Positions 1-15,790 of a stretch of 64,000 nucleotides of DNA are shown here, piece by piece. Every line of letters begins with the position of its first letter. Positions within the stretch are counted from its first letter, which is position 1. The position numbers were made by a program, and so were the translations under genes. Under the pieces are notes generated by a model. The model did not search any database. It worked only from the letters and a program-made list of their open reading frames with translations, and was not told the DNA's origin. The stretch is from an uncultured Clostridia bacterium (GTDB taxonomy: Bacteria > Bacillota > Clostridia > TANB77 > CAG-508): assembly GCA_904387305.1 (NCBI GenBank), contig CAJFLB010000001.1, positions 47,300 through 111,299 on the forward strand, in the 5' to 3' direction.

Positions 1-304
1 CAAAAGAGCAGAAACAGATTTAGAGTATAATTTAAAAATAACAACAACAACCAATTTACCATTAGAATATGCAATAGAAAAGAACGGAGAAATTTTAACG
101 ACACAGCAAAATATATTTACTGATGAGGATGGTACATATTATAGAGAAATCATAATAGAGCCATCACAAATGGTAGAAGGAGAAGATTTGACAGATAATT
201 ATGTTATTAAAGTAACATTTCCAAAAGAGAATGATACAAATGCAGAATATTCTGATTTGATAGAATATATAAAATTAGATATAAATGCAGAACAAATCAT
301 ATAG
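1..304 (+). CDS. C-terminal fragment of a TasA/camelysin-like secreted protein (5' end outside window)
   Basis: An open frame (second base onward) runs from the window edge to a TAG at 302-304 and encodes about 100 residues. The fragment has alternating beta-strand character, with runs such as LKITTTTNLPLEYAI and YVIKVTFPKEN and many Glu/Asn/Thr. The phrase TTTNLPLEYAI resembles the mid-region of TasA/CalY-type fibre proteins, where a bulk segment precedes a final strand. The end (YIKLDINAEQII) is typical of a strand closing the jelly roll. It lies directly upstream of the ATPase genes, so the surface-protein locus extends beyond this window. The N-terminal signal peptide cannot be seen, so the family assignment is inferred from the fragment and its neighbours. 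Confidence 0.55.
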   Translation, partial: KRAETDLEYNLKITTTTNLPLEYAIEKNGEILTTQQNIFTDEDGTYYREIIIEPSQMVEGEDLTDNYVIKVTFPKENDTNAEYSDLIEYIKLDINAEQII

Positions 305-315
305 TAGGACAAAAT

Positions 316-346
316 GGGACCAAACGGACCTGGTCCCAATGGACCC
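316..346. repeat. Family A palindromic repeat (short form)
   Basis: A GGGACC...GGTCCC-type palindrome lies between the stop codon at 304 and the AGGAGG ribosome binding site at 350-355. Copies of the same unit occur at 7725, 12601, 23717, 30505, 32437, 39880, 47529 and 54626. Confidence 0.85.
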
Positions 347-360
347 AACAGGAGGTAGAA

Positions 361-1407
361 ATGAATAACTTAATGGATACATATATAACATATACAGAAA
401 AGAAAATAAAAAAATATATAAAAACAATATTAGACAAACAATATGACGAAAATCTAGTAAGTGAATATTTAAAAACATATATTAATGCCAGATATTATAA
501 TATTCAAAATACAGACACACCTGCTAGAGCTTTTTACTTAAGAATATTAGAAGAATTAGAATATAAAGAAGATATTTTAATGAAAAGATGCGAAGAAGAA
601 TCTCAAAACTTAAATGAAAAGCAAGAACAATTAAATAAAATTCACAATTTGAAGGAATTGTTTGCATATATTTTATTTTTTGATAATGTTAGAAATGTAG
701 AAAATTTTAAGTCGATTGATAATATAAAAGAAATTATCAGTAAAATGATACAAACGGCAAATTCATTATTTAAAATAGAAGTTTCACAAAGTGTAGAAAA
801 AAAATTATATGAAGAAATCAAAAAAGATATGATTGAAAAAGAAGTATTTTTAGACAAATTTGATACAGATGAATTTGCTTTACAATTTGAAAATAGTAAA
901 GTCAAGGATGATGTATATTTTGTTACTTTAGAACAAAAAGTGAAAATGCCTATGCAGTATAGTGAGGCGGCGATAGAGAAAGTATATAATGAAGGAATTG
1001 TTGCAGAAGATAAATTGCAAGTAGAATATATATTATTAAGTGTTGTTGTCATTTCAGATATTATCAATGGGAATTTTGATGATAAATATATTGCAGAATT
1101 TGCAAGTACACTATTTAAAAAGAAACAAAAATTAGATAGTATATTGTCAATTCTAGGAAATCAAGAATTGCAAGATAAAATACATTTGAATATTATGTAT
1201 TCTGATTATATAAAAAATCAAAAAAGTATTTTAGCATATACAAAAAAAGGTTACAATTTTACGATTACATTAGATAACACAGTAAAAAGTATAGAAGATG
1301 TAGAAAAATTAAAAATGTTTAAAATGGTTATTGTACCACAAAAATTATCATTATATAAAGAAATAAAAAGCAATAAAGAAATTCTTAATAATGTAATACT
1401 AAAATAA
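361..1407 (+). CDS. Cytoplasmic protein of unknown function, first gene of the McrB-like module
   Basis: This 348-residue protein starts at ATG 361, eight bases after an AGGAGG site. It has no signal peptide or membrane segment and is rich in Lys, Glu, Ile and Asn. The N-terminal third looks helical and partly coiled (about residues 50-95). I do not recognise a family or catalytic motif. It ends 20 bases before the McrB-like ATPase gene, so the two are almost certainly co-transcribed and may act together, for example as an adaptor or substrate-binding subunit. That role is inferred from position only. A distant relation to other McrBC-module accessory proteins is possible but cannot be shown here. 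Confidence 0.75.
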   Translation: MNNLMDTYITYTEKKIKKYIKTILDKQYDENLVSEYLKTYINARYYNIQNTDTPARAFYLRILEELEYKEDILMKRCEEESQNLNEKQEQLNKIHNLKELFAYILFFDNVRNVENFKSIDNIKEIISKMIQTANSLFKIEVSQSVEKKLYEEIKKDMIEKEVFLDKFDTDEFALQFENSKVKDDVYFVTLEQKVKMPMQYSEAAIEKVYNEGIVAEDKLQVEYILLSVVVISDIINGNFDDKYIAEFASTLFKKKQKLDSILSILGNQELQDKIHLNIMYSDYIKNQKSILAYTKKGYNFTITLDNTVKSIEDVEKLKMFKMVIVPQKLSLYKEIKSNKEILNNVILK

Positions 1408-1427
1408 AGAAACAGGAGAAGGAAAAC

Positions 1428-2981
1428 ATGGAAACATATGGAAGATTTTTATTCGAATTTTTAAGCCAATTTTTCTCTGGATTTCAAGAGATTTTTGGTG
1501 GACTTTGGAATGGGATTGTAAATATATTTAATATACCAGGATATTGGAGTATTATCCAAAATTATGCTAATGATTTTAAAGTTTCAGAATGGCTTTTAAC
1601 AGGTTTAGCGATTATTTGTATGTTGATTGTAATAGGAGGTATTATTGGAATCATAATCTTTTTCTTGAAAAGACATATGAAATGGAGAAAAAAGATTATT
1701 AATCAAGAAGAATTATTAAAACAAATCGATACCTTAAATGGACAAGTAGAAGAATTAGTAGATGAAAAACTAAAATTGCTAAATATGAAGTCACCAGAAT
1801 TAGGTGTAAATCCAAATGGTATCAGTACAGGTATGGATAAAGCTGCACTTGCTGCTGCACAATCAGAAGCAAATAATGAAGAACAAATAGATCCAAATAG
1901 TCAAAGTAGATTCTCTAAATTAACAATGCTAGACGAAGAATTTGCAAAATATAAACAAAAAGATTATCACAATAATTTTACATTACCAGAATTTTGTTAT
2001 ATGTTTAGAAATTTTGCCGCAAGTAAGTTAAAACTATATTATAGTGAAAAGATGATAAGATTATTCGTATCAGCAATTGCATCAACAAAACTTGTTATTT
2101 TACAAGGTATTTCTGGTACAGGTAAAACATCTATATCTCTTGCATGGGGTAACTTTGTAAAACACCCATCATGTGTTGCATCTGTACAACCTTCTTGGAG
2201 AGATAGAACAGATATTTTTGGGTACTTAAATGAGTTCACCAAAAAATTTAATGAAACAGACTTTTTAGCATATTTATATGAAGCAGGATATACAGATGAA
2301 ATTTACACAGTTATCCTAGATGAGATGAACTTAGCGCGTGTGGAATACTATTTTGCAGAAATGTTATCAATTCTAGAAATGCATAGTACAAAAGATTGGA
2401 AAATTGAGATTGTACAAAGTTCATGGCCAACTGATCCAAAGAAATTGATAAAAGGAAAATTGCAAATTCCACCAAATGCATGGTATATAGGAACAATCAA
2501 CAATGACGACTCAACATTCATGGTAACAGATAAGGTATATGATAGAGCAATGCCAATAGATATTAATGAAAAAGGTATTGCATTTGAACCAGATGATGTA
2601 GATGCTCTTGACGTTAACTATTCATACTTAAATGGTTTATTTGATAAAGCAATTGTAGATTATGCTATATCACCATCAACTTTAAAAAAGATAGAAGACA
2701 TGGATAATTATACAATCAAACACTTTAGAGTTGCATTTGGTAACCGTATCGTAAAACATATGAAAAAATTTGTACCAGTATACGTAGCTTGTGGAGGAGA
2801 TGAAACAGAAGCGGTAGACTATTTCATGGCTAAAAAAGTATTAAGAAAATTTGAAGGATTAAACCTAACTTTAATTAGAGATGAAATTGATGGTTATATT
2901 GAGTTTTTGGACAAAAACTTTGGAAAAGGCAAAATGAGCGAATGTATAGAATTCTTATTAAGACTTAAAAAGATGTCTTAG
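1428..2981 (+). CDS. Membrane-anchored McrB-like AAA+ ATPase
   Basis: The protein has 517 residues and starts at ATG 1428 after an AGGAGAAGG site. Residues 56-80 form one transmembrane helix, followed by a basic stretch and a short coiled coil (about 90-120). The AAA+ core follows: Walker A GISGTGKTS (227-235), Walker B TVILDEMN (294-301) with the NLARVE continuation typical of the McrB/dynein-like branch, sensor-1 region IGTINND (354-360) and a DRA arginine-finger candidate (Arg373). Classical McrB has an N-terminal DNA-binding domain and an NTAD-type GTP signature; neither is seen. The ATPase therefore probably works at the membrane rather than in DNA restriction. A DUF2357-like gene lies two positions downstream, as in McrB/McrC pairs. 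The substrate is unknown. Confidence 0.85.
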   Translation: METYGRFLFEFLSQFFSGFQEIFGGLWNGIVNIFNIPGYWSIIQNYANDFKVSEWLLTGLAIICMLIVIGGIIGIIIFFLKRHMKWRKKIINQEELLKQIDTLNGQVEELVDEKLKLLNMKSPELGVNPNGISTGMDKAALAAAQSEANNEEQIDPNSQSRFSKLTMLDEEFAKYKQKDYHNNFTLPEFCYMFRNFAASKLKLYYSEKMIRLFVSAIASTKLVILQGISGTGKTSISLAWGNFVKHPSCVASVQPSWRDRTDIFGYLNEFTKKFNETDFLAYLYEAGYTDEIYTVILDEMNLARVEYYFAEMLSILEMHSTKDWKIEIVQSSWPTDPKKLIKGKLQIPPNAWYIGTINNDDSTFMVTDKVYDRAMPIDINEKGIAFEPDDVDALDVNYSYLNGLFDKAIVDYAISPSTLKKIEDMDNYTIKHFRVAFGNRIVKHMKKFVPVYVACGGDETEAVDYFMAKKVLRKFEGLNLTLIRDEIDGYIEFLDKNFGKGKMSECIEFLLRLKKMS

Positions 2982-2987
2982 TGGATA

Positions 2988-3210: not shown

Positions 3211-3222
3211 TTGGAGGGAAAA

Positions 3223-4344
3223 ATGGACTTAAATATTGTGAAATTGGCCAATATGGAAAAAGAAAATTCAACAAAATTTCTTAGCAAAATGGATTCTAAA
3301 TTAATGATGGATGTAGATAGAAGCAGTATTGTGGAAAATGATGAATGGATGGATATGGTTGAATTTACTGTTCCATATTTAGAAAAAGCATTAACAAAGG
3401 AAATTAAAAATATTGTAACAGAAGAAGAAATTATTAAAATAGAATTAATTAAAAAGGTAACTGTTGAAAGTGTAAAACATTTATCAAAACATGTAAATTT
3501 GGTAGATAGATTTAATCAAAAAAGTGGAGAAGTGACACCTAAGAAGATTTTAAATGCTTATAAAGAAGAAACGTTTCTAACTTATGAAAATAGATTTTTA
3601 TATACATTAATAAAACTGATTGAAGATTATATGTATTTAAGAAAAAAACAAGATGATGAAGAATATAAAGGGAAAAATCATCAAAAAGCAGATTATCAAG
3701 CAGAAATTAAATTAGGAAAAGAAAAAATTAATGTAAAGATGGAATATGATTCTGAAAGAATAACAGGAATTACAAAAACAGAAAAAACGGCAGAAAGAAT
3801 AGAAAGTATTGAAAGATCTTTAAAAATGTTAAAACAAACTGAGGTTTATCAAACTTTGGTTGCTAAAAAGGCAACTTATGTAAAAGCACCATTAAAAATG
3901 ACAAATGTTTTGTTGAAAAATGTCAATTTTCAATATGCTGTAAAACTATGGAATTATTTAAGTGACCAAATGGAATTAAATGATAAGACAATCAATGAAA
4001 GTAGTCAGTATGAAGAAAAAGGAATTGTAAAAGAATTAGTAGATGAAGATATATTTTTACTATATTCTATTTTCAAGAAAACAGATAATAGTAATACATT
4101 AAAAGGAAAAGCAAAATCAGCTGTTGAAGATAATAAGTTGGCAAAACAATTAACAGATGCCATGATAGAAAGAATTATAGAATTAAATCCTGATATGACA
4201 GAAAAAGAGTTAAATAAATTAATTTCAGAAAAAATTTTGATGATGAAAACAAAAAAATTAATTTCTTTAAAACCAGTAGAGGATAGATTTAAAGAAAGAA
4301 TTGAAAAATATATGATACAAGCAAAAGAAGTGAGGTTAAAATAA
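3223..4344 (+). CDS. DUF2357-like (McrC N-terminal-like) protein lacking a visible nuclease domain
   Basis: This is a 373-residue soluble protein. I chose ATG 3223 because GGAGGG lies at 3213-3218; the upstream in-frame TTG at 3211 belongs to the end of the family B repeat. The segment TFLTYENRFLYTLIKLIED (about 120-138) and the later block with YQTLVAKK, PLKMTNVLLKNVNF and KLWNYLSD match my recollection of DUF2357 proteins, which partner McrB-type ATPases. Those normally continue into a PD-(D/E)xK nuclease. Here the C-terminus is a Lys/Glu-rich helical tail without an E/D-x-K motif, so the protein is probably a structural or regulatory partner of the ATPase upstream. The stop abuts the signal peptidase start at 4345, which suggests coupling. 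Confidence 0.65.
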   Translation: MDLNIVKLANMEKENSTKFLSKMDSKLMMDVDRSSIVENDEWMDMVEFTVPYLEKALTKEIKNIVTEEEIIKIELIKKVTVESVKHLSKHVNLVDRFNQKSGEVTPKKILNAYKEETFLTYENRFLYTLIKLIEDYMYLRKKQDDEEYKGKNHQKADYQAEIKLGKEKINVKMEYDSERITGITKTEKTAERIESIERSLKMLKQTEVYQTLVAKKATYVKAPLKMTNVLLKNVNFQYAVKLWNYLSDQMELNDKTINESSQYEEKGIVKELVDEDIFLLYSIFKKTDNSNTLKGKAKSAVEDNKLAKQLTDAMIERIIELNPDMTEKELNKLISEKILMMKTKKLISLKPVEDRFKERIEKYMIQAKEVRLK

Positions 4345-5157
4345 ATGGAAAAACAGGAAGACAAAAGAGAAGAAAAGAAAATTAAAAATGGTGCGAGCAA
4401 AGCTAAAAAAAGTACTGCAAAAAAAGAAAGCGAAACAAAAAAAGATGAGACAAAAGCTAAAGGAAGCAAAATAGAAAACAATAAAACAAAAAGTGAAAAA
4501 AAAGAAAGTAAAGCAAAAAATAATGAATCTAAAAATGAGAAAAAAGAAAGCAAAATAAAAAATGAAGAAGCAAATAGTGAAAAGACGTATGAAGTAAAAA
4601 TGAAAAGAAAAGCTGGTAGTAGATGTCTTTCGTTTATTTGGAATATAGTTGTTAAAATAATAACGATTGCCATTATATTCATCTCTATTATTATAGTAGT
4701 ACAAAAAGTGACAAATAACCAAGAATCATTTTTAGGATTTAGAATATTCAGAGTACAAACTGGAAGTATGATTCCGAAATACCAAATTGGTGATGTTATA
4801 TTGGTAAAAGAAGTAGACACAGATAAAATTCAAATTGGTGATGATGTAACATATGAAGGAAAAACAGGTGCAATGAATGGAATGCTTGTTACTCACAGGG
4901 TGGTAGATATTGAAGAAGTGGATGGTAAAAGAGTTTTCCATACACAAGGTATAGCGAATAACTTAGAGGACCCTGTTGTAAGTGAAGAACAAATAAATGG
5001 TGTTGTTCAAACAAAAATGTATATTTTATCACTTATTTGTATGTTATTAAATAATAAATATATTTTCTATTTCTGTGGAATATTGCCATTAACAATATAT
5101 GTAGCTTTTAAAATTTTTAGAAGTAAAAAAGTAAAGAAAATAGAAAAAGAAAATTAA
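4345..5157 (+). CDS. SipW-type signal peptidase I with long charged N-terminal tail (first of three)
   Basis: The 270-residue protein starts at ATG 4345, immediately after the previous stop. Residues 1-90 are a low-complexity Lys/Glu/Ser tail, probably cytoplasmic. A transmembrane helix (about 97-120) is followed by the S26B peptidase core: TGSMIPKYQIGD with catalytic Ser141, THRVV with His184 (replacing the Lys of bacterial SPase I), then QGIANNLEDP. A second membrane segment lies at about 232-255. This Ser/His arrangement is that of SipW and the archaeal/ER enzymes. SipW processes TasA-like fibre proteins in Bacillus; the TasA-like gene 63 bases downstream is the likely client. The charged tail is unusual and could contact the cytoplasmic ATPase module, which is inference. 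Confidence 0.88.
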   Translation: MEKQEDKREEKKIKNGASKAKKSTAKKESETKKDETKAKGSKIENNKTKSEKKESKAKNNESKNEKKESKIKNEEANSEKTYEVKMKRKAGSRCLSFIWNIVVKIITIAIIFISIIIVVQKVTNNQESFLGFRIFRVQTGSMIPKYQIGDVILVKEVDTDKIQIGDDVTYEGKTGAMNGMLVTHRVVDIEEVDGKRVFHTQGIANNLEDPVVSEEQINGVVQTKMYILSLICMLLNNKYIFYFCGILPLTIYVAFKIFRSKKVKKIEKEN

Positions 5158-5220: not shown

Positions 5221-5949
5221 ATGAAAGAAAAAAATAAGGTTAGAATTATTGAAGTATTATGTGTAATTTCTTTAATCATTACCATTTTTTCTATACAAAG
5301 AACCTATGCAAGATATTTTGAACAAGTAGATACAACATATAATACAAATATCAAAAGATGGTTAGTTAAGGTAAATGATAAAATTATCTATGAGGCAGAA
5401 ACACTAAATGAGGTTATGGAACCTATTATTGTAGAAAATGAAAATGTAAATCCTAACATTTTAGTCCCTGGACAAACTGGATATTTTGAAATGCTAATAG
5501 ATTATACAGAGGTAGATGTTGCATTTGAGTACGAATTTTCTATGGAACAACTAAACGGAACACCATTAGAGGATTTTGAAATTTATGGATATGAGGTAAT
5601 TGATGGAGAGGAGCATACCATAACAGAGACAGAAGAAATAAAAGGTGTTATCGACCCAACAACTGAAGTAAATAGTGCAGGTGAAAAGAAAAGAGAAATC
5701 AGAATCTTATTTAGATGGAATGATGGAGAAGGAAGTACTATGGACAATAAAGCAGATACACAATTTAGAGGAGAGAAACAAAATACAACAAATGATGATA
5801 ACACGACAAATAATAATACAACAGATGATGATACGACAAATCAAGTTGAAAATAATACTTCTCAAGATGATTTACATACTGTACTAAAATATCGTGCAAC
5901 AATGACATTTACACAATATATACCACCAGAAGAAGAAATAACAACTTAA
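5221..5949 (+). CDS. TasA/camelysin-like secreted protein with Asn/Thr-rich segment
   Basis: A 242-residue protein starting at ATG 5221 after AAGGAAAAG. A basic N-terminus and a hydrophobic stretch (about 9-26) lead to RTYARYFEQ (27-35), the kind of site cut by SipW-type peptidases. The mature part is beta-rich and acidic, with VPGQTGYFEMLIDY near residue 80 resembling the pre-strand block of TasA-family proteins. A long Asn/Asp/Thr low-complexity run (about 190-215) precedes a final strand TVLKYRATMTFTQYIPPEEE. It lies between two SipW-type peptidase genes. It is probably an exported fibre or matrix subunit; assembly into fibres is inferred from the family. Confidence 0.72.
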   Translation: MKEKNKVRIIEVLCVISLIITIFSIQRTYARYFEQVDTTYNTNIKRWLVKVNDKIIYEAETLNEVMEPIIVENENVNPNILVPGQTGYFEMLIDYTEVDVAFEYEFSMEQLNGTPLEDFEIYGYEVIDGEEHTITETEEIKGVIDPTTEVNSAGEKKREIRILFRWNDGEGSTMDNKADTQFRGEKQNTTNDDNTTNNNTTDDDTTNQVENNTSQDDLHTVLKYRATMTFTQYIPPEEEITT

Positions 5950-5983: not shown

Positions 5984-6121
5984 ATGGAATTGAAAAATAT
6001 AAAAATAACTAATTTAGAAAATGATGAATTGTTAGATGCCCAAAAACAAGTAGAGAGTTTTTTGAAGTTTTTAAATGGGGAATATGAAACTGTTAAAAAA
6101 TTAGAGGAGGAAAATTCGTGA
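5984..6121 (+). CDS. Small 45-residue protein translationally coupled to the coiled-coil gene
   Basis: ATG at 5984 follows AGAGGTGA with good spacing, and the frame runs 45 codons to a TGA at 6119-6121. The GTG start of the next gene (6118) overlaps this stop in the arrangement GTGA, so translation is probably coupled. The product is charged and helical, with a leucine-spaced pattern (NLENDELLDAQKQVESFLKF), and has no membrane segment. An AGAGGAGG site near its 3' end serves the downstream start. I recognise no family. Its placement suggests a small partner of the 535-residue protein. Confidence 0.7.
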   Translation: MELKNIKITNLENDELLDAQKQVESFLKFLNGEYETVKKLEEENS

Positions 6122-7725
6122 AAGAGTTAGTAGAAAATATTGAAAAACAAATTACAACAGATAAAGAAGTCATTTCAGTACTACCAAGAAATGGGATAAA
6201 AGCAATCAAAACATTATTAAAAACGATAGCTGAGATGACAGAAAAATATGAAACTTTAAATGAAAAATTGCAAAAAGAAATAGAAACTAGATATACTGAA
6301 TTGACAACCGTTGAAGAAAATAAAGAGATTCCTCAATTAGAGCAAGAAATATTAAAATATGACATGGCTGAAAAAAATACAGATACACGTTCTTCATTCG
6401 AAAAAATGGGGCTAGATCGTGTCATATATAATGTAAATGGGTACTATAAAAGCAATTTAGAAAGATTAAACAAAGAACTTATTTTTAGTGTAAAACAATT
6501 TGAAAAAGTAGGAATCAAGCTAACAGCTGAAGATTTTTGTATTAGTGAATATGCAAAAAAATATATGGAAGTACTATTAAAAGAAGCATATGAAGGAGAT
6601 ATTAATTCAGAAGCTGTAAAAAATGTTTTTGAAAAAGTATATTGGCAATGTTCAGAAATCGTATCACACTTATATGTAAATATAAGATACATTTATGATA
6701 AATATGAAAATCACATAGATAGATTTTATAATGAAAAAGCACAAGAAATTTTACAAAGTCTTTCTTTAACATCAGAAGAATTAGAAGAGAAAAAAGCAGA
6801 GTTAATTAAGCAAAAAAATCAAATTGAAGAAACAGACAATAAAAATATCCTTGATAAATTTTTTATGGGAAGTTTGAATATCAATGATTATAAAGCAGAC
6901 AATTATAAGAGAATATATACAGAACTAACAGACAAAGATGTTACTAAATTATCAGAAACTGAAAAGAAAGAAATAGATGAGAATATTGATAAATTAAATA
7001 CAAATTTAACAGAATATGCAAAATATTTAGAATATAAATTCTTAGTAGAAGAAGTTTTGCAAACAAGACAAGAATTGTTAAAAAATGCTGAAGCCAATAA
7101 AGATAAAAAAGTAAAGAAAACACAATATGAGTTAATCAAAGAAGAAATTAAAAAATTACAATCAGAAATCTTTAAATTAAATTCTAAAATTGAAAAACCA
7201 AATAAAGGATTTTTCGAAAGAAAAAAAGTAGAAGAAAAGAAAGATAGTATTGCTATTTTACAAAGAAATAATTTGGTTTTAGATTTGAAAAAGACATATA
7301 TGCAATTAGATGAAGAAGTAATCAAACAAAAAATACTTCAAGATTTAGATGAAACATCATCATTATATGATGTTATCAAATTTGCAAGTAGTTACTATGG
7401 ATATATGGCTAAGGTAATGATAAAAAATAATGAAGATATTACAGATAAAGAAATTGGAGAGAAAGCTGAGAAAATAAGAAAATTTGTTAATTTTTCTAAT
7501 TTTACAGTGATAAATCATGTAAATATAAGTGATACAAAAGAATTATCAATTATTATAAAAGATAAATATAAATTATTAGGAATGCAAATTTCAAAAGAAA
7601 ATTTTGAAGAAGATAGCATAGACGATTTAATCAGAAAAGTAAAAATTATAAACAATTATAATAATATTCAAAAAAGTAAATTTGCTATTAAAGATTTAGA
7701 ATTTATTATGAATGTAAAGAAATAG
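6118..7725 (+). CDS. Large cytoplasmic coiled-coil protein, unknown function
   Basis: The 535-residue protein starts at GTG 6118, with GAGGAGG eight bases upstream, and overlaps the preceding small gene by four bases. It has no signal peptide or membrane helix. Long Lys/Glu/Leu heptad-rich stretches (about 25-75, 215-240 and 330-370) predict extended coiled coils separated by more globular parts containing Tyr/Phe-rich helices. No P-loop or enzymatic motif is visible. It sits between TasA-like and signal-peptidase genes. A role as scaffold for the ATPase or for secretion of the surface proteins fits the context but is inferred. Coiled-coil partners are known in some McrBC-type systems. Confidence 0.72.
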   Translation: MKELVENIEKQITTDKEVISVLPRNGIKAIKTLLKTIAEMTEKYETLNEKLQKEIETRYTELTTVEENKEIPQLEQEILKYDMAEKNTDTRSSFEKMGLDRVIYNVNGYYKSNLERLNKELIFSVKQFEKVGIKLTAEDFCISEYAKKYMEVLLKEAYEGDINSEAVKNVFEKVYWQCSEIVSHLYVNIRYIYDKYENHIDRFYNEKAQEILQSLSLTSEELEEKKAELIKQKNQIEETDNKNILDKFFMGSLNINDYKADNYKRIYTELTDKDVTKLSETEKKEIDENIDKLNTNLTEYAKYLEYKFLVEEVLQTRQELLKNAEANKDKKVKKTQYELIKEEIKKLQSEIFKLNSKIEKPNKGFFERKKVEEKKDSIAILQRNNLVLDLKKTYMQLDEEVIKQKILQDLDETSSLYDVIKFASSYYGYMAKVMIKNNEDITDKEIGEKAEKIRKFVNFSNFTVINHVNISDTKELSIIIKDKYKLLGMQISKENFEEDSIDDLIRKVKIINNYNNIQKSKFAIKDLEFIMNVKK

Positions 7726-7766: not shown

Positions 7767-8387
7767 ATGGAGCTGAGAACAAAATTGGAATATGATGTTG
7801 AAAAAATTTCTAACAAAATAAAACATAAAAAAAGAAAAAAAAAGATAGTAAAATTTGTGATACTCATTATTTTAATTATACTTTTTATAGTGAATATCAT
7901 TTTAGCAATAGAAGAAAGAACACATATTTTTGGGATATATATGTTTAACATTATTTCTGAAAGTATGGAACCAACATTTTATAAAGATGATTTAGCACTT
8001 GTAAAAAGTTGCAATATGGAAGAACTAAAAAAAGGAGATATTATTACATTTAAACAAGAAGATAGAATTATTTCACATAGGATATCAGAAATTATAGAAG
8101 AAAAAGGAAAGAAACAATTTATTACTAAAGGGGATAATAACGAAGTAGAAGATATAGAACCAGTAGATGTGCAGAATATATATGGGAAAGTTGTATTAGT
8201 TATTCCAAAAATAGGAAAAATAGTAAATTACATACAAAATGCAAGAGGATTTATCAATATATGTATTTTGATAATAATTATATGTATTTTAGTTAATTTT
8301 AGGGACAATATGATAAATAATCGAAAAATTAAAAGAAAAAAATACGAAATAAAAAAATTGAGAGATAATTATAAGATAGAGGGTTAA
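7767..8387 (+). CDS. SipW-type signal peptidase I (second of three), divergent catalytic block
   Basis: The 206-residue protein starts at ATG 7767. A basic N-terminus (KKRKKKIVKF) leads into a transmembrane helix at about 28-48. The catalytic block reads SESMEPTFYKDD with Ser66; the usual Gly before the Ser is Glu here. ISHRIS supplies His104, and TKGDNNEVEDIEPV matches the conserved late motif of S26B peptidases. A second membrane helix (about 162-177) and a basic tail end the protein. It is separated from the next peptidase gene by three bases. Sequence differences from the other two suggest a different client set or a divided task; only biochemistry could show which. Confidence 0.85.
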   Translation: MELRTKLEYDVEKISNKIKHKKRKKKIVKFVILIILIILFIVNIILAIEERTHIFGIYMFNIISESMEPTFYKDDLALVKSCNMEELKKGDIITFKQEDRIISHRISEIIEEKGKKQFITKGDNNEVEDIEPVDVQNIYGKVVLVIPKIGKIVNYIQNARGFINICILIIIICILVNFRDNMINNRKIKRKKYEIKKLRDNYKIEG

Positions 8388-8390
8388 AAT

Positions 8391-9251
8391 ATGAGAGAGG
8401 ATAATAGACAAAAAAGTAATGCAAAAAAAATAATAAAAATCATATTGATCATATTATATCAAATTCTTGTCATAATGGCTTTAATTTTAACAGTGGTAAT
8501 TGTTTTGCAAAGAGTAACCAATAGTAATAGATCAATAGGAGGATATAAAATATTTAGAGTTATTACTGGAAGTATGGAGCCTGAATATGAAGTTGGAGAA
8601 GTGGTTATCAGTAAAGAAGTAGATCCAAAAGACATTAAAGTAGGGGATGATATTGTATATTTGGGTAAAACTGGCGAATATGCAGGAAAAATTATCATGC
8701 ATAATGTTGTTGGAATAGAGACAGGCGAAAATGGAAATTTGATTTTTCATGCAAAAGGTTTACAAAGTAATAGTATTGAAGATCCTCAAATTAGTGAAGA
8801 CCAAATATATGGTGTTGTAAAATATAGAGCAGGTATTTTGACAACATTGTATAATTTAGCAACAAATATATATTCCATATTTTTTATTATTATCATTTTA
8901 GTATTAAATGTATTTATATCATTTAATACACCTAAAAAACCAAAAAAACCTAAAAAACGTAAAATAAAACAAATTGAAAATATCAGTGATGCATCAGATG
9001 AAGATTTTGAAGAAGAGGAAATAGAAGAAGATACAGAAGAATATGAATTTGAAGAAGAAAATGATGATGTGGAAGAAGAGCATGAGTCTACTAAGAATGA
9101 AGAATATATAGAAGATGACAACAATAATGATGAAGATAGTGAAAAGATAACACATGAAGAAATCATAAACGAAAAAATGAGGCAATATTATGAAAAGACA
9201 ATAAAGAATACAAATAATAATTCACAAAAGAAAAAGGGGAAAAACAAATGA
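8391..9251 (+). CDS. SipW-type signal peptidase I (third of three) with acidic C-terminal tail
   Basis: This 286-residue protein starts at ATG 8391, three bases after the previous stop. A transmembrane helix at about 14-40 precedes the catalytic block TGSMEPEYEVGE with Ser61. The basic residue of the dyad is His104 in MHNVV, where most relatives have HRVV. The late motif is AKGLQSNSIEDP. A second membrane helix (about 155-178) is followed by a Pro/Lys segment and a strongly acidic, Glu/Asp-rich tail of about 90 residues, likely cytoplasmic. Its core is closest to the first peptidase (4345), which has a basic tail instead. The opposite charges could let the two interact, which is speculation. 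The TasA-like gene begins 15 bases downstream. Confidence 0.86.
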   Translation: MREDNRQKSNAKKIIKIILIILYQILVIMALILTVVIVLQRVTNSNRSIGGYKIFRVITGSMEPEYEVGEVVISKEVDPKDIKVGDDIVYLGKTGEYAGKIIMHNVVGIETGENGNLIFHAKGLQSNSIEDPQISEDQIYGVVKYRAGILTTLYNLATNIYSIFFIIIILVLNVFISFNTPKKPKKPKKRKIKQIENISDASDEDFEEEEIEEDTEEYEFEEENDDVEEEHESTKNEEYIEDDNNNDEDSEKITHEEIINEKMRQYYEKTIKNTNNNSQKKKGKNK

Positions 9252-9266: not shown

Positions 9267-9971
9267 ATGAATATATTACGTGAATTTAGACGAGTTAAAA
9301 AGCGAAGTCTACCAGCTAGAATTTTACTGATTTCGATATTTTCTGTAATATTAATAATAAATACCTATGCATGGTTTAATTCAAATCAGCCAGTTAATAT
9401 GAGTGGACTGGAAGCCAATATAACACCTTGGGATGTTCGATATTATGTAGATGATAAAGAGGTATTAGATGAAACTGTTACATTTACAATAGATGAATTA
9501 TATCCAGGTATGCCTAATAGAGAAGATATAGTACGAATATATAATATGAGTACGACAAGTACAAGCATTAATTATGAAGTAACATCTGTAAAAGTGTTTG
9601 GACAAGAAGTATTAGATCAGCTAAAAGAAAATAATATCATGCAAACCGATGGGAATACAGTACATATATTTGCAGATGATACAGAATATCCTTTTGATAT
9701 CGGTTATACATATGATAGAGCAAGATTGGATGGCGAATATGTAGATGATGAAACAACACCAAATGCTGGAGCAACTTTTAAATTTCAAGCAAGTTGGGAG
9801 TATCAAGGAGAGGGAACAGAAGATGAAAATCTTGCTAGAGATATTTTAGATACGAAGTTTGGACAAGGTGCTTATGAATATTATCAAAATGAAGAAAATG
9901 ATCCATCTAAGGCAATTGAAATAACAGTTAAAATAACAAGTTCTATGATTCATCCAAGTGAAGATACATAA
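9267..9971 (+). CDS. TasA-like secreted protein with TYAWF signal motif
   Basis: A 234-residue protein starting at ATG 9267, with GGAGG seven bases upstream. The N-terminus is basic (RRVKKR), followed by a hydrophobic stretch (about 18-32) ending in NTYAWFNSN (32-40), the pattern shared by the exported proteins of this locus. The mature part is acidic and beta-rich. The segments ITPWDVRYYVDDKE and IDELYPGMPNREDIVRIYN align by eye with the N-terminal half of the lectin-like protein at 14111, so the two share a domain. No catalytic motif is seen. It directly follows the third signal peptidase and is probably its substrate. A large hairpin element follows 15 bases after the stop. Confidence 0.72.
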   Translation: MNILREFRRVKKRSLPARILLISIFSVILIINTYAWFNSNQPVNMSGLEANITPWDVRYYVDDKEVLDETVTFTIDELYPGMPNREDIVRIYNMSTTSTSINYEVTSVKVFGQEVLDQLKENNIMQTDGNTVHIFADDTEYPFDIGYTYDRARLDGEYVDDETTPNAGATFKFQASWEYQGEGTEDENLARDILDTKFGQGAYEYYQNEENDPSKAIEITVKITSSMIHPSEDT

Positions 9972-11223: not shown

Positions 11224-12504
11224 ATGAGAGAAGAAAACATTCAAAGAAACTCAAGAAAAAGATTAAATGCATTAATTTTATTAGTAGCATTTACAGCAAT
11301 CTTATTGATTGTAGCAACCTATGCGTGGTTCTCTACACAGAGAAACGTAACATTAGGTGGACTAGAAGGACAAGTAAACGTAGCTGAAGGTCTACAAATT
11401 TCATTAGATGCTTTAAACTGGGCAAACGAAATTGATTTGACAGATAATGCATCAGCATATTTTGCACAAACCAATACAAACAATGGATGGACAGATGATG
11501 ATATGGTATCATTAGTAAATCCTTGGAAACAAGGTGCAGGTGGTACTTATACTTATCAAGCACGTACAAATTTAGTACCAAGTGAATTATTACCAGCTTC
11601 TACAACAGCACAAAGCACAGAAGGTATTGGATTAAATGATTTAAATATGTATAGAGGAGATGTTGAGTCAGGAAAAAAATTAACTAATGTTGCAAAATTA
11701 GCAGCTGAAGCTGATTCAGGATATTATGCAATTGACTTCTTCCTACAAAACTCTTCTTCAACAGAAGCAATTGAAGGAAGTACAAAAGACTTACTTAGAA
11801 TTGAAAGTAATTCATCAATTAATTTAAATGAAACATCAAGAGAGTCAACAGGTTTACAAAATACATTAAGAGTAGCATTTGCTATATTTGATGAGGATTC
11901 AGATTTAGAGGATACGACATTAGTTAATAATACACCAAGTCAAGCAGATATATTACAAGCGACTACTGGTGCTGATCGTTTAATCACAGATGTAGCTATT
12001 TGGGAACCAAATGCAAGTGGTGCACAAGTTGGAACAAGTCCAACAATTACAACATATGCAGCACATGTTGATTACATCGTACAAAACAACAATAAATTAA
12101 CATTATCATCAACAGATAGAACAAGTTTAACATCAGGTACAAGTAGATTTGATGCAGATGATCCAGTACCTACATATGCTTTAACAGCAACATCTGTTTC
12201 AAAAGAAATAGCTGATATATATAATTGGGACACAGCAGCAGCAGCTAATGGATTAGTAAAACAAAATACAGTAAAAACACCTAATACAGGTATCATAGCA
12301 GACAATCCAATTCAATTAAAGAGTGTTAAAGATGGTACAACTGATTTTGCAATTGCACCAGGTAAATATATCCATATGAGAATGTATGTATGGCTAGAAG
12401 GACAAGACGTTGACTGTATCAACTATGCTTCACTAGGTGGAGGATTAACAATTGATGTTGGATTAAGCAAACCAGGTTCAGCAACAGATGGTGTAGGTGG
12501 CTAA
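11224..12504 (+). CDS. Large TasA-like surface protein, probable major exported subunit
   Basis: A 426-residue protein starting at ATG 11224 after AAGGGAG. A basic start (RNSRKR) and hydrophobic stretch (about 16-30) end in ATYAWFSTQR (31-40). The mature protein is rich in Thr, Ser, Asn, Ala and Gly, with few Cys and predicted beta structure. The end contains MYVWLEGQDVDCINYASLGG, shared in pattern with the preceding protein. A canonical intrinsic terminator follows 48 bases after the stop, so this gene closes the transcript started at 10249. Size and composition fit an abundant structural subunit, but abundance is inferred. A CTTTTGTG/CACAAAAG hairpin lies in the upstream gap (about 11138-11162). 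Confidence 0.75.
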   Translation: MREENIQRNSRKRLNALILLVAFTAILLIVATYAWFSTQRNVTLGGLEGQVNVAEGLQISLDALNWANEIDLTDNASAYFAQTNTNNGWTDDDMVSLVNPWKQGAGGTYTYQARTNLVPSELLPASTTAQSTEGIGLNDLNMYRGDVESGKKLTNVAKLAAEADSGYYAIDFFLQNSSSTEAIEGSTKDLLRIESNSSINLNETSRESTGLQNTLRVAFAIFDEDSDLEDTTLVNNTPSQADILQATTGADRLITDVAIWEPNASGAQVGTSPTITTYAAHVDYIVQNNNKLTLSSTDRTSLTSGTSRFDADDPVPTYALTATSVSKEIADIYNWDTAAAANGLVKQNTVKTPNTGIIADNPIQLKSVKDGTTDFAIAPGKYIHMRMYVWLEGQDVDCINYASLGGGLTIDVGLSKPGSATDGVGG

Positions 12505-12600: not shown

Positions 12601-12666
12601 GGGACCATTGGGACCATTGGGACCAGGTCCGTTTGGTCCCATTTGGGACGTTTCTTTTTGGGACAT
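12601..12666. repeat. Family A repeat joined to a family B half-unit
   Basis: A family A unit (12601-12640, with an extra GGGACCATT copy) is followed directly by the family B segment TTGGGACGTTTCTTTTTGGG. The two families are adjacent here and again at 54626-54812. Confidence 0.8.
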
Positions 12667-13145
12667 ATCAAGAAGAAAACGATTTTGTCGAATTTTGCGA
12701 TGAAAAGTGTGCATATGTTGTTGAAAAAATTAGAAGAATGTGTTTATATATACATAGATAAAAATTGTTTAGTTATTAATTAATTTTGTATTCTATTATT
12801 AGTTTTTTATTATATTTAGAATGATTTTAAATTTCATTAGCGAGATTTTATTATCATAATTTTATTATCATAATTTTATGATTAAGAATTTTCATTAAGG
12901 TTTTGTTGGTAAGATTTTATTATTCAAATTTTATCGTCAAGATTTTATATTAAGATTAGAAATGTTTATATCAATATATCAAATTTTACGCAATTAAAAA
13001 TCCACTATTGTTTAGAACTGGAACGATTTGACACGTTCACTGTTCTTCTATTGAGATGCAACATAAAGTCTTATAAAATTTCAAAAAATAATAAGAAAGA
13101 GTTGAAGAAAAAAGAAAAATTTAGTAAAATAAAGGAGGAAATTTA
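12667..13145. other. AT-rich intergenic stretch with decayed short repeats
   Basis: No convincing gene. From about 12847 to 12955 the motif ATTTTATTA with ATCATAATTTT variants recurs imperfectly, like a decayed tandem array. At about 13016-13047 GAAC...GTTC segments can form a small hairpin. The AAAGGAGG site at 13132-13139 belongs to the next gene. Confidence 0.5.
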
Positions 13146-13991
13146 TTGAATAGAGAGACACAATTAAAAGTAACAAATGATTACATATTTAAGAAAATAT
13201 TTGCTAAAAAGGGAAATGAAAGTATATTAAAAGATTTATTGAATTCAATTTTACAAATTAAAATAAAAAGTATTGAAGTAATAGCAGATGCGAATTTAGA
13301 AAGACAGTTAGAAAGTAATAAATTAGGAATTTTAGATTTAAAAGCGAAAGTGGATGAAGATACAATTGTTAATATTGAAATTCAAATTATAAATCGATAT
13401 AATATGATAGAAAGAACTTTATTTTATTGGTCAGGATTATATTATAATGTTTTACAAAAAGGTGCAGACTATAAAGAAATAAAAAAAGTAATCGCAATCA
13501 ATATATTGGACTATAACGAATTTGAAGAAGGTCCATATCATGAGATAGCAAAACTAAGAAGAGAGTATTTATATAAAATATTAACAGATAAAATAGAAAT
13601 TCATTTTATACAAATTCCTAAATTTAAGAAGCAAAGAAAAGATATGAAAACCAAATTGGATATGTGGATGGATTTTATCAGTCAAATAGATGAGAAGGAG
13701 GTAAAAAATGCTATGAGTAAAAATAAGGAAATTAAAAAGGCACAGGAAGAATATGAATACTTAACTGGCGATGAAGAAGAAAGAAGAATAGCATTTTTGA
13801 GAGAGAAGGCAATTAGAGATGAAAACTCAATATTTGATGCAGGAAAAGATATTGGAAGAAAAGAAGGAAAAGAAGAAGGAAAAAAAGAAATAGCAAAATC
13901 AATGTTAAAAGAAAAAATGCCAATTGAAACAATCATAAAAATAACAAAATTATCAAGAAAAGAAATAGAAAAAATAGAAAAAGAAATGTAG
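13146..13991 (+). CDS. Rpn-family PD-(D/E)xK nuclease (putative transposase)
   Basis: The 281-residue protein starts at TTG 13146, with AAAGGAGG at 13132-13139. The N-terminus (TNDYIFKKIFAKKGNES) and the nuclease core are those of Rpn/PD-(D/E)xK family transposase proteins: GILDLKAKVDED with Asp64, then NIEIQ with Glu78 and Gln80 in place of the common Lys. The last 70 residues contain the Lys/Glu-rich GRKEGKEEGKKE repeat common in this family's tail. Known members act in RecA-independent recombination; in clostridia they are multicopy and often lie near short repeats. Family B repeats follow 11 bases after the stop. It interrupts the surface-protein locus and may be an insertion into it. Confidence 0.85.
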   Translation: MNRETQLKVTNDYIFKKIFAKKGNESILKDLLNSILQIKIKSIEVIADANLERQLESNKLGILDLKAKVDEDTIVNIEIQIINRYNMIERTLFYWSGLYYNVLQKGADYKEIKKVIAINILDYNEFEEGPYHEIAKLRREYLYKILTDKIEIHFIQIPKFKKQRKDMKTKLDMWMDFISQIDEKEVKNAMSKNKEIKKAQEEYEYLTGDEEERRIAFLREKAIRDENSIFDAGKDIGRKEGKEEGKKEIAKSMLKEKMPIETIIKITKLSRKEIEKIEKEM

Positions 13992-14002
13992 ATTTTATAA
14001 AA

Positions 14003-14066
14003 TGTCCCCAAAAGAAAAGTCTCTAAAGGGACAAAATGTCCCAAACAGAAACGTCCCCAAAAGGAC
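14003..14066. repeat. Two family B half-units in tandem
   Basis: A diverged unit (TGTCCCCAAAAGAAAAGTC) is followed by a standard unit (GTCCCAAACAGAAACGTCCC). They lie between the Rpn gene and the ribosome binding site of the lectin-like gene. Confidence 0.75.
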
Positions 14067-14110
14067 AAAAAGGAATTATACAAATGAGAAAAGGAGGGTA
14101 AAATATACAA

Positions 14111-15790
14111 ATGAGCAATATATTGCGTAGACATAGAAAGTCGAATGAAAAGAATAAATTCAGAAAATCTTTAGCACTTATTTTTACCCTTATAATGACA
14201 ACATTTGCATGGTTTGCCTATACAAAAATATTAAATCCAAGCTTAAACATACATGTGGCAGCATGGGATATGGAATATTATATAAATGGTGAAAAAAAGG
14301 AAAATCCAATTGGAATTGAATTTCCTACATTATATCCACAGATGGAAGATCAAGTGGTAAAAGTAGATATTTTAAATAATGGAGAAGCATTAGTAGATTT
14401 AAGCTATCGAATACAAGCGATATCAATAGTTGGAGTTACATACGAATTAGTAGCAGAAGGTGAGCAACCGACAACAGAGAATTATATAATGATTGAAGAT
14501 CCAATATTAGAATCAGATCCAGAAACAGGTGAGCTCTTATCAAAAGGATTTATCATTAATGATCCGGAAAAATTTCCATTCACACTGGAAATCGAACATT
14601 CTCTGCAAGTAGCAGCACAGGATGATGCATACTTAGAAGTGACTGCTAAATGGCCAGGGGATAATGATGAATTAGATACAGAGTGGGGATATACCGTTGG
14701 AAAATATTTTATGGATAATCCAGATGCTACTTCGGCAATGGATATTACATTAAGTATTGATTCATATCAAGCAAATGATGAAATTATAGGAGGAATAGGA
14801 AACTTACCAAATGGACCTGGTACGAGACCATATTTACCAAGTTCTGATTTTACACAAGTAGAAGGAACATCATTAGAAACAGGATTAGTTATTCAAGATT
14901 CAGCTGGAAATGAATATGTTTGGATAGAAGTACCAAAACTTGCAAGTATATATCCAACAGCTGGTATTAGTATACAAGATTTTACAGATGAAGAATATCA
15001 AAAAATTGAAAATGATTTACACACATATGCTTCAACATATAGAAATGGAACTTCTGCAAGTGATACATATTATTCAGAAGAGACAACAGGATTATCAAGT
15101 AGTGAATATACTGAATTAAAACAAAAAATGTTAAAGAGTGTTTATCAACATGGAGGCTTCTATGTATCAAGATATGAAGCAGGAACAAATACAAAGAGAA
15201 GTAGTAATACATCTATTGAAGACTTAGTTCCGTTGTCACAACCAAATCAATATCCAATTAATTGGATAACATGTAGTCAAGCACAAACATTGGCAAGTAA
15301 AGTAAGTACAAATGGATATTCAGGAAGTTTAATGTTTGGTATTCAATGGGATTTAGTCCAAAAATATATCGAAACAAAGGCAGTAGCGCAAGGAACCGAA
15401 ATTGGAGCAATTCAATCACAATTAATCAATAATAGTACCTCTTGGGGAAATTATCAGCCAAGTATATATAATATTGTAAATGAAAATGCACAATATTCAT
15501 TAAATAATGGTTCACAATGGTTACAAGCACCTTATGATAAAACTTCAGCAAGATCTGTATTATTATCAACAGGAGCCAATACTGCTTTCGGAAAACAAAA
15601 TATATTAGACTTAGCAGGAAATGTATGGGAATGGACTTTGGAAAATTCGAATGTAAGTTCTCAACCATGTGTTATAAGAGGTGGATCATATGAGAGCAGT
15701 GCTTCTTCTGAGTTAACTGTAAATGCTAGAAGTAATAATACTAGCACACAAACATATTGGAGTATTGGATTTAGAATGACAATATTCTAG
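14111..15790 (+). CDS. Exported TasA-like protein with C-terminal SUMF1/C-type-lectin-like domain
   Basis: The 559-residue protein starts at ATG 14111 with AGGAGGG upstream. A basic start and hydrophobic stretch (about 19-31) end in TTFAWFAYTK. Residues about 45-230 resemble the protein at 9267 (WDMEYYINGEKKENP, FPTLYPQMEDQVVKVDI). From about residue 275 a formylglycine-generating-enzyme-like fold begins: EYVWIEVPK, GGFYVSRYEAG (about 350), DLAGNVWEWTLEN (about 503), RGGSYESS and the final IGFRMTIF. The GNVWEWT and RGGS blocks are hallmarks of the family. I do not see the paired active-site cysteines of true sulfatase-modifying enzymes, so binding rather than catalysis is likely. It could be a fibre tip adhesin; that is inference. 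Confidence 0.78.
   Translation: MSNILRRHRKSNEKNKFRKSLALIFTLIMTTFAWFAYTKILNPSLNIHVAAWDMEYYINGEKKENPIGIEFPTLYPQMEDQVVKVDILNNGEALVDLSYRIQAISIVGVTYELVAEGEQPTTENYIMIEDPILESDPETGELLSKGFIINDPEKFPFTLEIEHSLQVAAQDDAYLEVTAKWPGDNDELDTEWGYTVGKYFMDNPDATSAMDITLSIDSYQANDEIIGGIGNLPNGPGTRPYLPSSDFTQVEGTSLETGLVIQDSAGNEYVWIEVPKLASIYPTAGISIQDFTDEEYQKIENDLHTYASTYRNGTSASDTYYSEETTGLSSSEYTELKQKMLKSVYQHGGFYVSRYEAGTNTKRSSNTSIEDLVPLSQPNQYPINWITCSQAQTLASKVSTNGYSGSLMFGIQWDLVQKYIETKAVAQGTEIGAIQSQLINNSTSWGNYQPSIYNIVNENAQYSLNNGSQWLQAPYDKTSARSVLLSTGANTAFGKQNILDLAGNVWEWTLENSNVSSQPCVIRGGSYESSASSELTVNARSNNTSTQTYWSIGFRMTIF

What the first reader, a model, noticed from the sequence alone, without database searches (positions are those of the whole stretch)
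1..15790. A locus joining a membrane McrB-like ATPase module to SipW-type peptidases and TasA-like surface proteins
Seen: an McrB-type AAA+ ATPase with a transmembrane helix, a DUF2357-like partner, a coiled-coil protein with a small coupled partner, three S26B signal peptidases, and six proteins or fragments with TasA-like features, all on one strand with short gaps. Known: SipW/TasA systems in Bacillus use one peptidase and one or two fibre subunits; McrB/DUF2357 pairs are otherwise linked to restriction. Inferred: the ATPase module may power assembly, quality control or defence-coupled release of a surface fibre. I know no described system with this composition.
Basis: partly seen in the sequence, partly recalled or inferred. 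Interest (0 to 1): 0.85.

Follow-up and report, generated by a model that had tools for sequence, protein, structure and literature searches.

The report
McrB-like motor in a surface-fibre operon
In many uncultured bacteria, a membrane-anchored relative of a DNA-restriction motor sits in one conserved gene cluster with signal peptidases, one of which looks catalytically dead, and the surface-fibre-like proteins they probably cut, which suggests a largely undescribed energy-driven machine for building a surface structure.

Summary
The McrB-like gene (1428-2981) and DUF2357 gene (3211-4344) lie in a conserved gene cluster that continues upstream of the window. Of 62 relatives with at least 3 kb on both sides, 60 carry DUF2357, SipW-type peptidase and SipW-substrate-like genes near McrB. 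None of 20 other McrB loci of the phylum has the last two.

New parts found here: (1) the peptidase at the operon's start lacks the catalytic His in 59 of 59 distinct copies, while two operon partners keep the Ser-His pair (42 of 42, 81 of 82); (2) orf1 has an EAL-like predicted fold, and in three loci it is fused to a SipW; (3) peptidase and substrate are fused in six loci; (4) no nuclease was detected in the DUF2357 partner; two control McrC proteins have one.

The kind is not wholly unknown. An eLife 2024 paper (PMC11090510) names 'CoCoPALM' systems, McrB fused to an FtsB-like membrane domain and linked to signal peptidases, in one paragraph. Best reading: an NTP-driven membrane platform ordering assembly of a mixed TasA-like surface fibre. 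The mechanism is inferred. TasA-family membership was not supported by sequence.

The parts
1..304 (+). 3' end of a SipW-substrate-like protein (TasA5 family); full gene is L002:19020-19604
   Evidence: a signal motif after the membrane helix in 58 of 68 family members
361..1407 (+). orf1, cytosolic protein with a degenerate EAL-like C-terminal domain; probable adaptor between SipW and the McrB module
   Evidence: AF2 pLDDT 85.9; the first 46 Foldseek rows are EAL-containing proteins, best E 2.2e-4; sub-threshold Pfam EAL matches in 5 of 18 members; fused to SipW in L121, L127, L131; a membrane helix in 0 of 85
1428..2981 (+). membrane-anchored McrB-like AAA+ NTPase (N-terminus out, AAA+ in the cytosol, by charge rule)
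   Evidence: PDB McrB match; motif GTINNDDSTF, membrane helix and more positive charge after the helix in 96 of 96 members of 480-560 aa
3211..4344 (+). DUF2357 (McrC N-terminal-like) partner with no detectable nuclease
   Evidence: Pfam DUF2357, no PDDEXK_7; two control McrC proteins carry both
4345..5157 (+). SipW-type signal peptidase (position after DUF2357, Ser-His pair present)
   Evidence: TIGR02228 5.4e-22; 81 of 82 distinct copies at this position keep Ser and His
5221..5949 (+). SipW-substrate-like surface protein (TasA1 family, YARY signal)
5984..6121 (+). 45-aa ORF overlapping the start of the next gene
   Evidence: sequence; relatives in L028, L029, L031
6118..7725 (+). CC, 535-aa cytosolic protein of the cluster; no known domain found
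   Evidence: 12 homologues in the own-order loci, found in 21 of 80 named loci; a membrane helix in 0 of 34
7767..8387 (+). SipW-type signal peptidase
   Evidence: TIGR02228 3.7e-33
8391..9251 (+). SipW-type signal peptidase
   Evidence: TIGR02228 9e-18
9267..9971 (+). SipW-substrate-like surface protein (TasA2 family, [FY]AWF signal)
   Evidence: family member fused to SipW in L058 and L119
10326..11126 (+). MP, membrane-anchored protein mostly without the SipW signal; possible base (inference)
   Evidence: A8 alignment; signal motif in 13 of 56
11224..12504 (+). SipW-substrate-like surface protein (TasA3 family, YAWF signal)
   Evidence: A7 alignment; a motif in 65 of 66
14111..15790 (+). 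TasA2-family signal and N-terminal part joined to an FGE-sulfatase-like domain; likely an added surface protein
   Evidence: Pfam 3.4e-6 at residues 463-556; own family profile

Best explanation
This is an operon for a cell-surface fibre or coat built from several TasA-like subunits, with its own membrane-anchored NTP-driven assembly platform. Seen in sequence: a set of related proteins with SipW-type signals, SipW peptidases with intact Ser-His pairs in fixed places, one conserved SipW-like protein without the catalytic His, a membrane-anchored McrB-like NTPase with a DUF2357 partner lacking a detectable nuclease, an EAL-like cytosolic protein that can be fused to SipW, and often a giant repeat protein. 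Inferred mechanism: the precursors wait in the membrane by their uncleaved signal helix. The McrB-like protein forms a ring on the cytosolic face, and DUF2357 sits in it as activator, as McrC does in McrB. The ring is tied through orf1 to the cytosolic tail of SipW. NTP hydrolysis, perhaps gated through the EAL-like domain, times cleavage and release so that subunits enter the growing fibre in order. The dead peptidase holds its neighbouring subunit (TasA4) uncut, as initiator or membrane anchor, in the way S. pyogenes SipA is needed for pilus polymerisation.
For: The usual gene order recurs in own-order loci and in the 80 named loci. 60 of 62 named loci with 3-kb flanks, and 15 of 15 own-order loci with such flanks (20 examined), hold Sip, substrate-like and DUF2357 genes, against 0 of 20 control McrB loci with Sip or substrate-like genes. 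Median gaps of 1-16 bp between orf1, McrB, DUF2357, Sip and TasA2. Fusions: Sip-orf1 in 3 of 80 loci, Sip-TasA5 in 4, Sip-TasA2 in 2. First peptidase: His in 0 of 59 distinct copies, against Ser-His in 42 of 42 and 81 of 82 at the other two positions. Five substrate families related to one another by profile comparison, five pairs over 125-202 columns. Orf1 EAL-like fold in a genome with 3 GGDEF matches and one full EAL. Precedent: the dead signal-peptidase-like SipA is essential for pilus polymerisation (PMC4049620, passages).
Against: B. subtilis TasA assembles by donor-strand exchange, helped by TapA; the paper's main text has no word beginning with 'ATP' (PMC9674648, passages). SipW is common without this McrB (116 of 191 genomes match SipW, 18 have the system), so such an NTPase is not needed for SipW function in general. 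No match to solved TasA was found. DUF2357 modelled poorly (pLDDT 63.5), so its place in a McrB ring is by analogy only. Only 2 of 558 Foldseek rows for orf1 reach E 0.001; Pfam EAL matches are below cut-off and my own EAL profile found none. Two of 62 loci lack SipW and substrate-like genes within 3 kb. Presence of c-di-GMP enzymes was checked only in the own genome among those with the system. No expression, localisation or fibre data exist.
Confidence: 0.55

Rival explanations
1. Regulatory or quality-control module: the McrB ring, DUF2357 and the EAL-like protein sense the state of the surface assembly or c-di-GMP and switch SipW on or off or clear stalled precursors, but do not power assembly itself.
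For: EAL-like partner and GGDEF proteins in the genome; SipW-orf1 fusions place the EAL-like domain on the peptidase itself; the TasA paper makes no mention of ATP in its main text.
Against: No direct sign of c-di-GMP binding: orf1 has only three invariant residues in 18 sequences, and the EAL catalytic residues look lost (my reading). A full AAA+ ring is a heavy tool for a switch (inference).
Confidence: 0.25
2. Defence: a Type IV restriction-like or membrane-acting anti-phage system that uses the surface proteins as a barrier or receptor mask.
For: McrB and DUF2357 are restriction-family parts; PADLOC candidate PDC-M26A matches McrB, best stretch residues 202-322, at 5.1e-36.
Against: No nuclease model matched in the DUF2357 partner, whereas two control McrC proteins have PDDEXK_7. 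Orf1, DUF2357 and CC have no PADLOC hit. The recurring partners are secretion and surface genes.
Confidence: 0.1
3. Chance or passive linkage: a restriction-like module that happens to lie beside a surface-protein cluster.
For: SipW-family genes are common in the order (116 of 191 genomes).
Against: 60 of 62 loci, recurring order with 1-16 bp median gaps, rearranged but still linked in another family (L042, L043), gene fusions, and 0 of 20 controls.
Confidence: 0.02

Closest known systems
[quoted passage not shown] PMC11090510, section 7 read, other passages seen)
   Same: NxD-type McrB GTPase fused to a membrane segment, McrC-like DUF2357 partner, linked to signal-peptidase-family proteins
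   Different: The paper gives one paragraph and defers the rest to a later publication. That passage does not mention substrates, a dead peptidase, an EAL-like partner, SipW-orf1 fusions or the giant protein. The paper's supplement was not readable here, so identity with its listed loci is unconfirmed.
tapA-sipW-tasA operon of Bacillus subtilis (PMC9674648, passages; PMC10151520, abstract and opening)
   Same: Dedicated SipW-type peptidase beside secreted proteins with a membrane-spanning signal
   Different: One peptidase and two substrates; those passages mention no McrB, DUF2357 or EAL-like protein; no sequence-level relation to TasA found here
SipA of Streptococcus pyogenes pili (PMC4049620, passages)
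   Same: A signal-peptidase-fold protein with lost catalytic residues, encoded in a surface-fibre gene cluster
   Different: Relative of Ser-Lys SPase I, works with sortase-built pili; here the dead protein is of the SipW type, and no LPXTG was seen in the last 60 residues of 41 large ORFs
McrBC and CoCoNuT Type IV restriction
   Same: Homologous AAA+ domain and DUF2357
   Different: Here a membrane helix is present and no nuclease was detected
FimX and other degenerate EAL proteins
   Same: EAL-like fold with apparent loss of catalysis; FimX structures are linked to type IV pilus biogenesis in the PDB titles
   Different: No GGDEF match in orf1, no shown c-di-GMP binding

Membership tests
CoCoPALM | NxD motif, usually followed by E or D, in the GTPase | tested here: met
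   GTINNDDSTF in 96 of 96 clade members; 21 of 24 control McrBs are NxDE. An ungapped alignment to E. coli McrB would also fit NxxD.
CoCoPALM | GTPase fused to an FtsB-like transmembrane domain | tested here: inconclusive
   Membrane helix in 96 of 96; homology to FtsB not tested
CoCoPALM | Coiled coil fused to the McrB homologue | tested here: inconclusive
   Heptad bias not beyond shuffles (median 0.4 of shuffles reach it)
CoCoPALM | Coiled coil fused to the McrC homologue | not tested
   DUF2357 model too poor to judge
CoCoPALM | Association with signal-peptidase-family proteins | tested here: met
   60 of 62 loci within 3 kb
CoCoPALM | Listed in the paper's supplementary file | not testable with these tools
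   No supplement look-ups allowed
McrBC Type IV restriction | PD-(D/E)xK nuclease in the McrC homologue | tested here: not met
   No PD-(D/E)xK model among the 13 families matched by the 16 members at E 0.1; two control McrC proteins match PDDEXK_7 at 2.1e-44 and 2.9e-55. A degenerate nuclease fold is not excluded (poor model).
SipW / S26B signal peptidase | TIGR02228 over cut-off with Ser-His pair | tested here: met
   4 of the 5 genes over cut-off; Ser-His kept at the two main positions. The Bacillus SipW equivalog cut-off (NF046067) is not reached by the three window genes.
SipW / S26B signal peptidase (first gene, L002:17038-17886) | Catalytic His | tested here: not met
   0 of 59 distinct orthologues by position; Ser kept in 7 of 59, the window's own copy among them
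TasA / camelysin family | Sequence match to the family or to solved TasA | tested here: not met
   No such match in Pfam for 16 members of A5 nor in the PDB for A6, A7, A8
TasA / camelysin family | SipW-type signal next to a cognate SipW | tested here: met
   Motif counts against backgrounds; SipW-substrate fusions in 6 loci
TasA / camelysin family | Jelly-roll fold and donor-strand polymerisation | not tested
EAL domain | EAL fold | tested here: met
   Foldseek on a predicted model: first 46 rows EAL-containing proteins, best E 2.2e-4, TM 0.35/0.46, 2 rows at E 0.001 or better
EAL domain | Pfam EAL over cut-off | tested here: not met
   5 of 18 members match below cut-off, best 2.6e-4; of 8 scanned singly, 3 match in residues 215-306, E 0.014-0.043

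The most novel reading that the evidence does not exclude
A distinct Gram-positive assembly pathway: a membrane-anchored ring NTPase recruited from a restriction system drives the ordered building of a mixed TasA-like surface fibre. Main subunits have their own SipW, one SipW has become a non-cutting chaperone, and an EAL-derived adaptor couples the peptidase to the motor. The fibre carries a giant repeat adhesin through a conserved C-terminal strand motif rather than a sortase signal.
Probability: 0.4. Interest if true: 0.9.

Novelty: new variant of a known kind. Interest (0 to 1): 0.74.

Why it matters
The TasA papers seen here describe assembly without a cytosolic energy source. A restriction-family motor with no detectable nuclease, wired to SipW peptidases, would be a new use of McrB and a new route for surface assembly in uncultured Clostridia and Bacilli, many of them from gut and rumen by their record titles. 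The dead peptidase, a possible parallel to S. pyogenes SipA in another peptidase type, and the SipW-orf1 fusion give concrete, testable handles on how the membrane and cytosolic halves talk.

Tried and rejected
Rejected: chance linkage (60 of 62 loci against 0 of 20 controls). Restriction as the main role (no nuclease detected). PADLOC gives one hit, in the AAA+ region of McrB.

Led nowhere: DUF2357 structure (pLDDT 63.5, no meaningful match). TasA fold by sequence profile. An EAL profile of my own from eight domains gave no support for orf1; an earlier attempt used too few sequences. The heptad test for a coiled coil was inconclusive. Pfam on three giant proteins, on two ~310-aa proteins and on CC gave nothing useful. 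The McrB tree puts 96 of 96 clade members together with none of 23 controls inside, but the support value at that node is low (0.435).

Their titles mark nearly all as metagenome-assembled. In a 398-genome sample of the phylum, only the window's own genome carries a full-length clade member, so the system is common only in some groups. The controls are 20 of the 21 best non-clade matches of that survey (a second locus of one genome was not fetched); stretches are 5 to 19 kb. Three weakly matching McrB loci of the own order (L048, L049, L051) also show no SipW. Four loci occur in both locus sets; the distinct-sequence counts allow for this, the gap, McrB and motif counts do not. McrB counts of 96 leave out fragments and other lengths (480-560 aa kept). 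Genes were called by a simple longest-ORF rule and many contigs end early, so some missing genes are artefacts. By any position, the 80 loci show DUF2357 80, Sip 77, TasA2 74, the ~310-aa protein 69, orf1 68, TasA1 63, TasA5 55, TasA4 50, TasA3 42, MP 39, CC 21. The two of 62 loci without SipW are, by the map, L109 and L118. Other S26 copies, outside the three named positions, keep Ser-His in 29 of 37. In the profile comparisons the Sip control reached 35% against TasA5, and the signal motif also occurs in 80 of 235 Sip and 8 of 104 McrB proteins. The C-terminal motif of the giant proteins was written after looking at their ends.

Literature: CoCoPALM was searched by name (10 papers hold the string; by title only the eLife paper and its preprint are about these systems). 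'McrB' with 'SipW' gave one paper, unrelated by title. A third search returned the same two McrBC papers among eight, the rest unrelated by title. 'DUF2357' with 'McrB' gave four papers, of which I opened one. Subscription papers and the supplement were not searchable. For PMC11090510 I read section 7 and saw passages; PMC4049620 and PMC9674648, passages; PMC10151520, abstract and opening.
Full report
The observation. The window is the last 64 kb of a 111-kb contig of a 1.89-Mb genome. In window order the genes are orf1 (361-1407), McrB-like (1428-2981), DUF2357 (3211-4344), SipW-type peptidase (4345-5157), a TasA-like protein (5221-5949), a 45-aa ORF, the 535-aa CC gene (6118-7725), two more SipW-type peptidases (7767-9251), three surface-type proteins up to 12504, then a transposase-family gene and one more surface-type protein to 15790. 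McrB is real: its profile hits E. coli McrB in the PDB at 3.5e-6, and Pfam DUF2357 matches 16 of 16 aligned members of the partner family. The cluster does not start at the window edge. Just upstream lie two further S26 genes, two substrate-like genes and small membrane proteins (back to about -4.9 kb), then giant ORFs of 6891, 1136 and 2984 aa back to about -38.8 kb.

It is not chance. In the own order, 18 of 191 genomes carry the McrB clade at high score (22 match at E 0.001, four of them weakly). The same 18 carry the DUF2357 family (19 match, one weakly), and all 18 have 2 to 11 SipW matches, although SipW is matched in 116 of 191. In the window's own genome all five SipW-family matches lie in 11.2 kb at this locus. 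All 80 have DUF2357 and 77 have a Sip gene somewhere in the stretch. Among the 62 with 3 kb on both sides, 60 have SipW, substrate-like and DUF2357 genes within 3 kb; in the own-order set it is 15 of 15 (20 loci given). As a control, 20 of the 21 best other McrB matches from a 398-genome phylum survey have no SipW or substrate-like gene and no strong membrane helix (0 of 20). In that survey only the window's own genome carries a full-length clade member, so the system is common only in some groups.

The conserved operon. The usual order is: dead Sip, TasA4, SipE, TasA5, a ~310-aa surface protein, orf1, McrB, DUF2357, SipA, TasA2, TasA1 (reversed), MP, TasA3, CC, giant protein, with many loci lacking some parts or cut by contig ends. 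Gaps are short: medians of 10 bp (orf1-McrB), 16 (McrB-DUF2357), 1 (DUF2357-Sip) and 7.5 (Sip-TasA2) over 83 to 99 cases; in the window itself the McrB-DUF2357 gap is 229 bp. In a different family (L042, L043) the order is shuffled but McrB, DUF2357, Sip, MP and TasA3 stay together. In the window's own lineage CC sits after the TasA1 gene, and the ~310-aa protein is split and moved upstream.

A conserved dead peptidase. I aligned the S26 genes of these loci (247) and read the catalytic Ser and His columns. Counting distinct sequences, the first gene of the operon has His in 0 of 59 and Ser in 7 of 59; the window's own copy keeps Ser but not His. The second (SipE position) has both in 42 of 42, and the one after DUF2357 in 81 of 82, the exception being a 76-aa fragment. 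Where a Sip gene lies directly before the ~310-aa gene or orf1, 12 of 13 also lack the pair. Copies elsewhere keep it in 29 of 37. Loss of catalytic residues in a gene that stays in place points to a non-catalytic job. S. pyogenes SipA is a precedent: a signal-peptidase fold without its Ser-Lys pair that is essential for pilus polymerisation (PMC4049620, passages).

Which enzyme goes with which substrate. Four loci (L064, L073, L076, L092) fuse SipE to TasA5, and two (L058, L119) fuse SipA to TasA2, each in one ORF with both domains strongly matched. The substrate families have characteristic signal motifs after the membrane helix, most often YAKY for TasA1, [FY]AWF for TasA2, YAWF for TasA3, YALF for TasA4, LS[RK]Y for TasA5 and FGRY for the ~310-aa protein. 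Such a motif occurs in 80 of 82, 85 of 93, 65 of 66, 45 of 62, 58 of 68 and 71 of 81 of them, against 80 of 235 Sip, 8 of 104 McrB and 13 of 56 MP proteins. Profile comparisons relate TasA1, 2, 4, 5 and the ~310-aa protein to one another, mostly with probability 87-100% (TasA4 with the ~310-aa protein is lower, 64%), five pairs over 125-202 columns. TasA3 matches mainly in the signal region. Controls against DUF2357 give under 1%, but the Sip control reaches 35% against TasA5. No match to solved TasA or a TasA family model was found, so 'TasA-like' describes the signal and context, not proven family membership.

The cytosolic half. A membrane helix was found in 0 of 85 orf1, 0 of 98 DUF2357 and 0 of 34 CC proteins. 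McrB has one in all 96 members of 480-560 aa, with more positive charge after it than before it in 96 of 96, so the AAA+ domain is most likely inside. Its motif GTINNDDSTF is invariant; 21 of 24 control McrBs show the related NxDE form, which fits the NxD branch of PMC11090510 (section 7). Two control McrC proteins carry DUF2357 plus a PDDEXK_7 nuclease, while the 377-aa partner here matches only part of DUF2357, and no nuclease model matched it or its relatives. Orf1 modelled well (pLDDT 85.9), and the first 46 Foldseek rows are proteins with EAL domains (some, such as RocR and DosP, so known by recall), FimX first; only two rows reach E 0.001. Five of 18 relatives give sub-threshold Pfam EAL matches, in three of eight checked singly within residues 215-306. 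A profile test of my own found none, so the EAL link rests mainly on a predicted structure. The own genome has three GGDEF matches and one full EAL. In L121, L127 and L131 an N-terminal SipW domain, with Ser and His in place by eye, is followed by the whole orf1 domain, which topology would put in the cytosol. This is the most direct sign that the peptidase and the McrB-side module work together.

The giant proteins. Of 41 large ORFs (900 aa or more, operon strand, C-end inside the fetched stretch), 28 end in a shared motif of the form GTYKLxFxLYD...YIIVK, a pattern written after looking at the ends, and none has LPXTG in its last 60 residues. At least five of the other 13 look like unrelated neighbours (my reading).

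How it most likely works. Precursors sit in the membrane, SipW enzymes cut them, and a McrB ring with DUF2357 as activator, linked through orf1 to SipW, orders cutting and release; the dead Sip holds TasA4 as starter or anchor. The parts, their linkage and the fusions are seen in sequence; ring formation, NTP use, fibre formation and order of assembly are inferred. A purely regulatory role for the ring is the main rival.

Known and new. PMC11090510 names CoCoPALM in one paragraph and defers detail. By NxD motif, membrane anchor and peptidase link this locus fits that kind; FtsB homology and coiled coils were not established here. The dead peptidase, the EAL-like adaptor, the SipW-orf1 and SipW-substrate fusions, the substrate families and the giant protein are additions that I did not see in the parts of papers read or in the listings searched.

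Noticed in passing
L002:15419-16204 (-), window about -3881 to -3096, and palindromes at -2992, -2948, -2904 and 316: A gene that looks by eye like a REP-associated (Y1) transposase lies beside three spaced copies of a GGGACC...GGTCCC palindrome; the same palindrome recurs upstream of orf1, and 14 GGACC-GGTCC cores occur in about 103 kb. The transposase label is my reading, not a database hit.
   Followed up: partly
window 13146-13991: A PD-(D/E)XK transposase-family gene (Pfam PDDEXK_2, 3.5e-52) sits inside the cluster; among the own-order loci examined only the window's copy was found. The 80 named loci were not searched for it.
   Followed up: no
window 14111-15790: A TasA2-type signal and N-terminal part joined to an FGE-sulfatase-like domain; such folds are also used by some adhesins (recalled).
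   Followed up: no
window about -4942 to -4066; L028, L029; L033:3556-4501; L039:12100-13180: The ~310-aa surface gene is split into two ORFs in the window's lineage and in two others; true split, error or switching not resolved.
   Followed up: no
L003, window about -38789 to -26450: Two neighbouring ORFs of 2984 and 1136 aa that may be one broken giant surface gene, next to a 6891-aa giant.
   Followed up: no
L028 and L040 (genome G007); L054 and L085 (one assembly by accession): Some genomes hold two copies of the McrB region.
   Followed up: no
L109, L118: A divergent form: McrB and DUF2357 followed directly by a 2.76-kaa giant protein with the shared C-terminal motif and no SipW in the fetched stretch.
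   Followed up: partly
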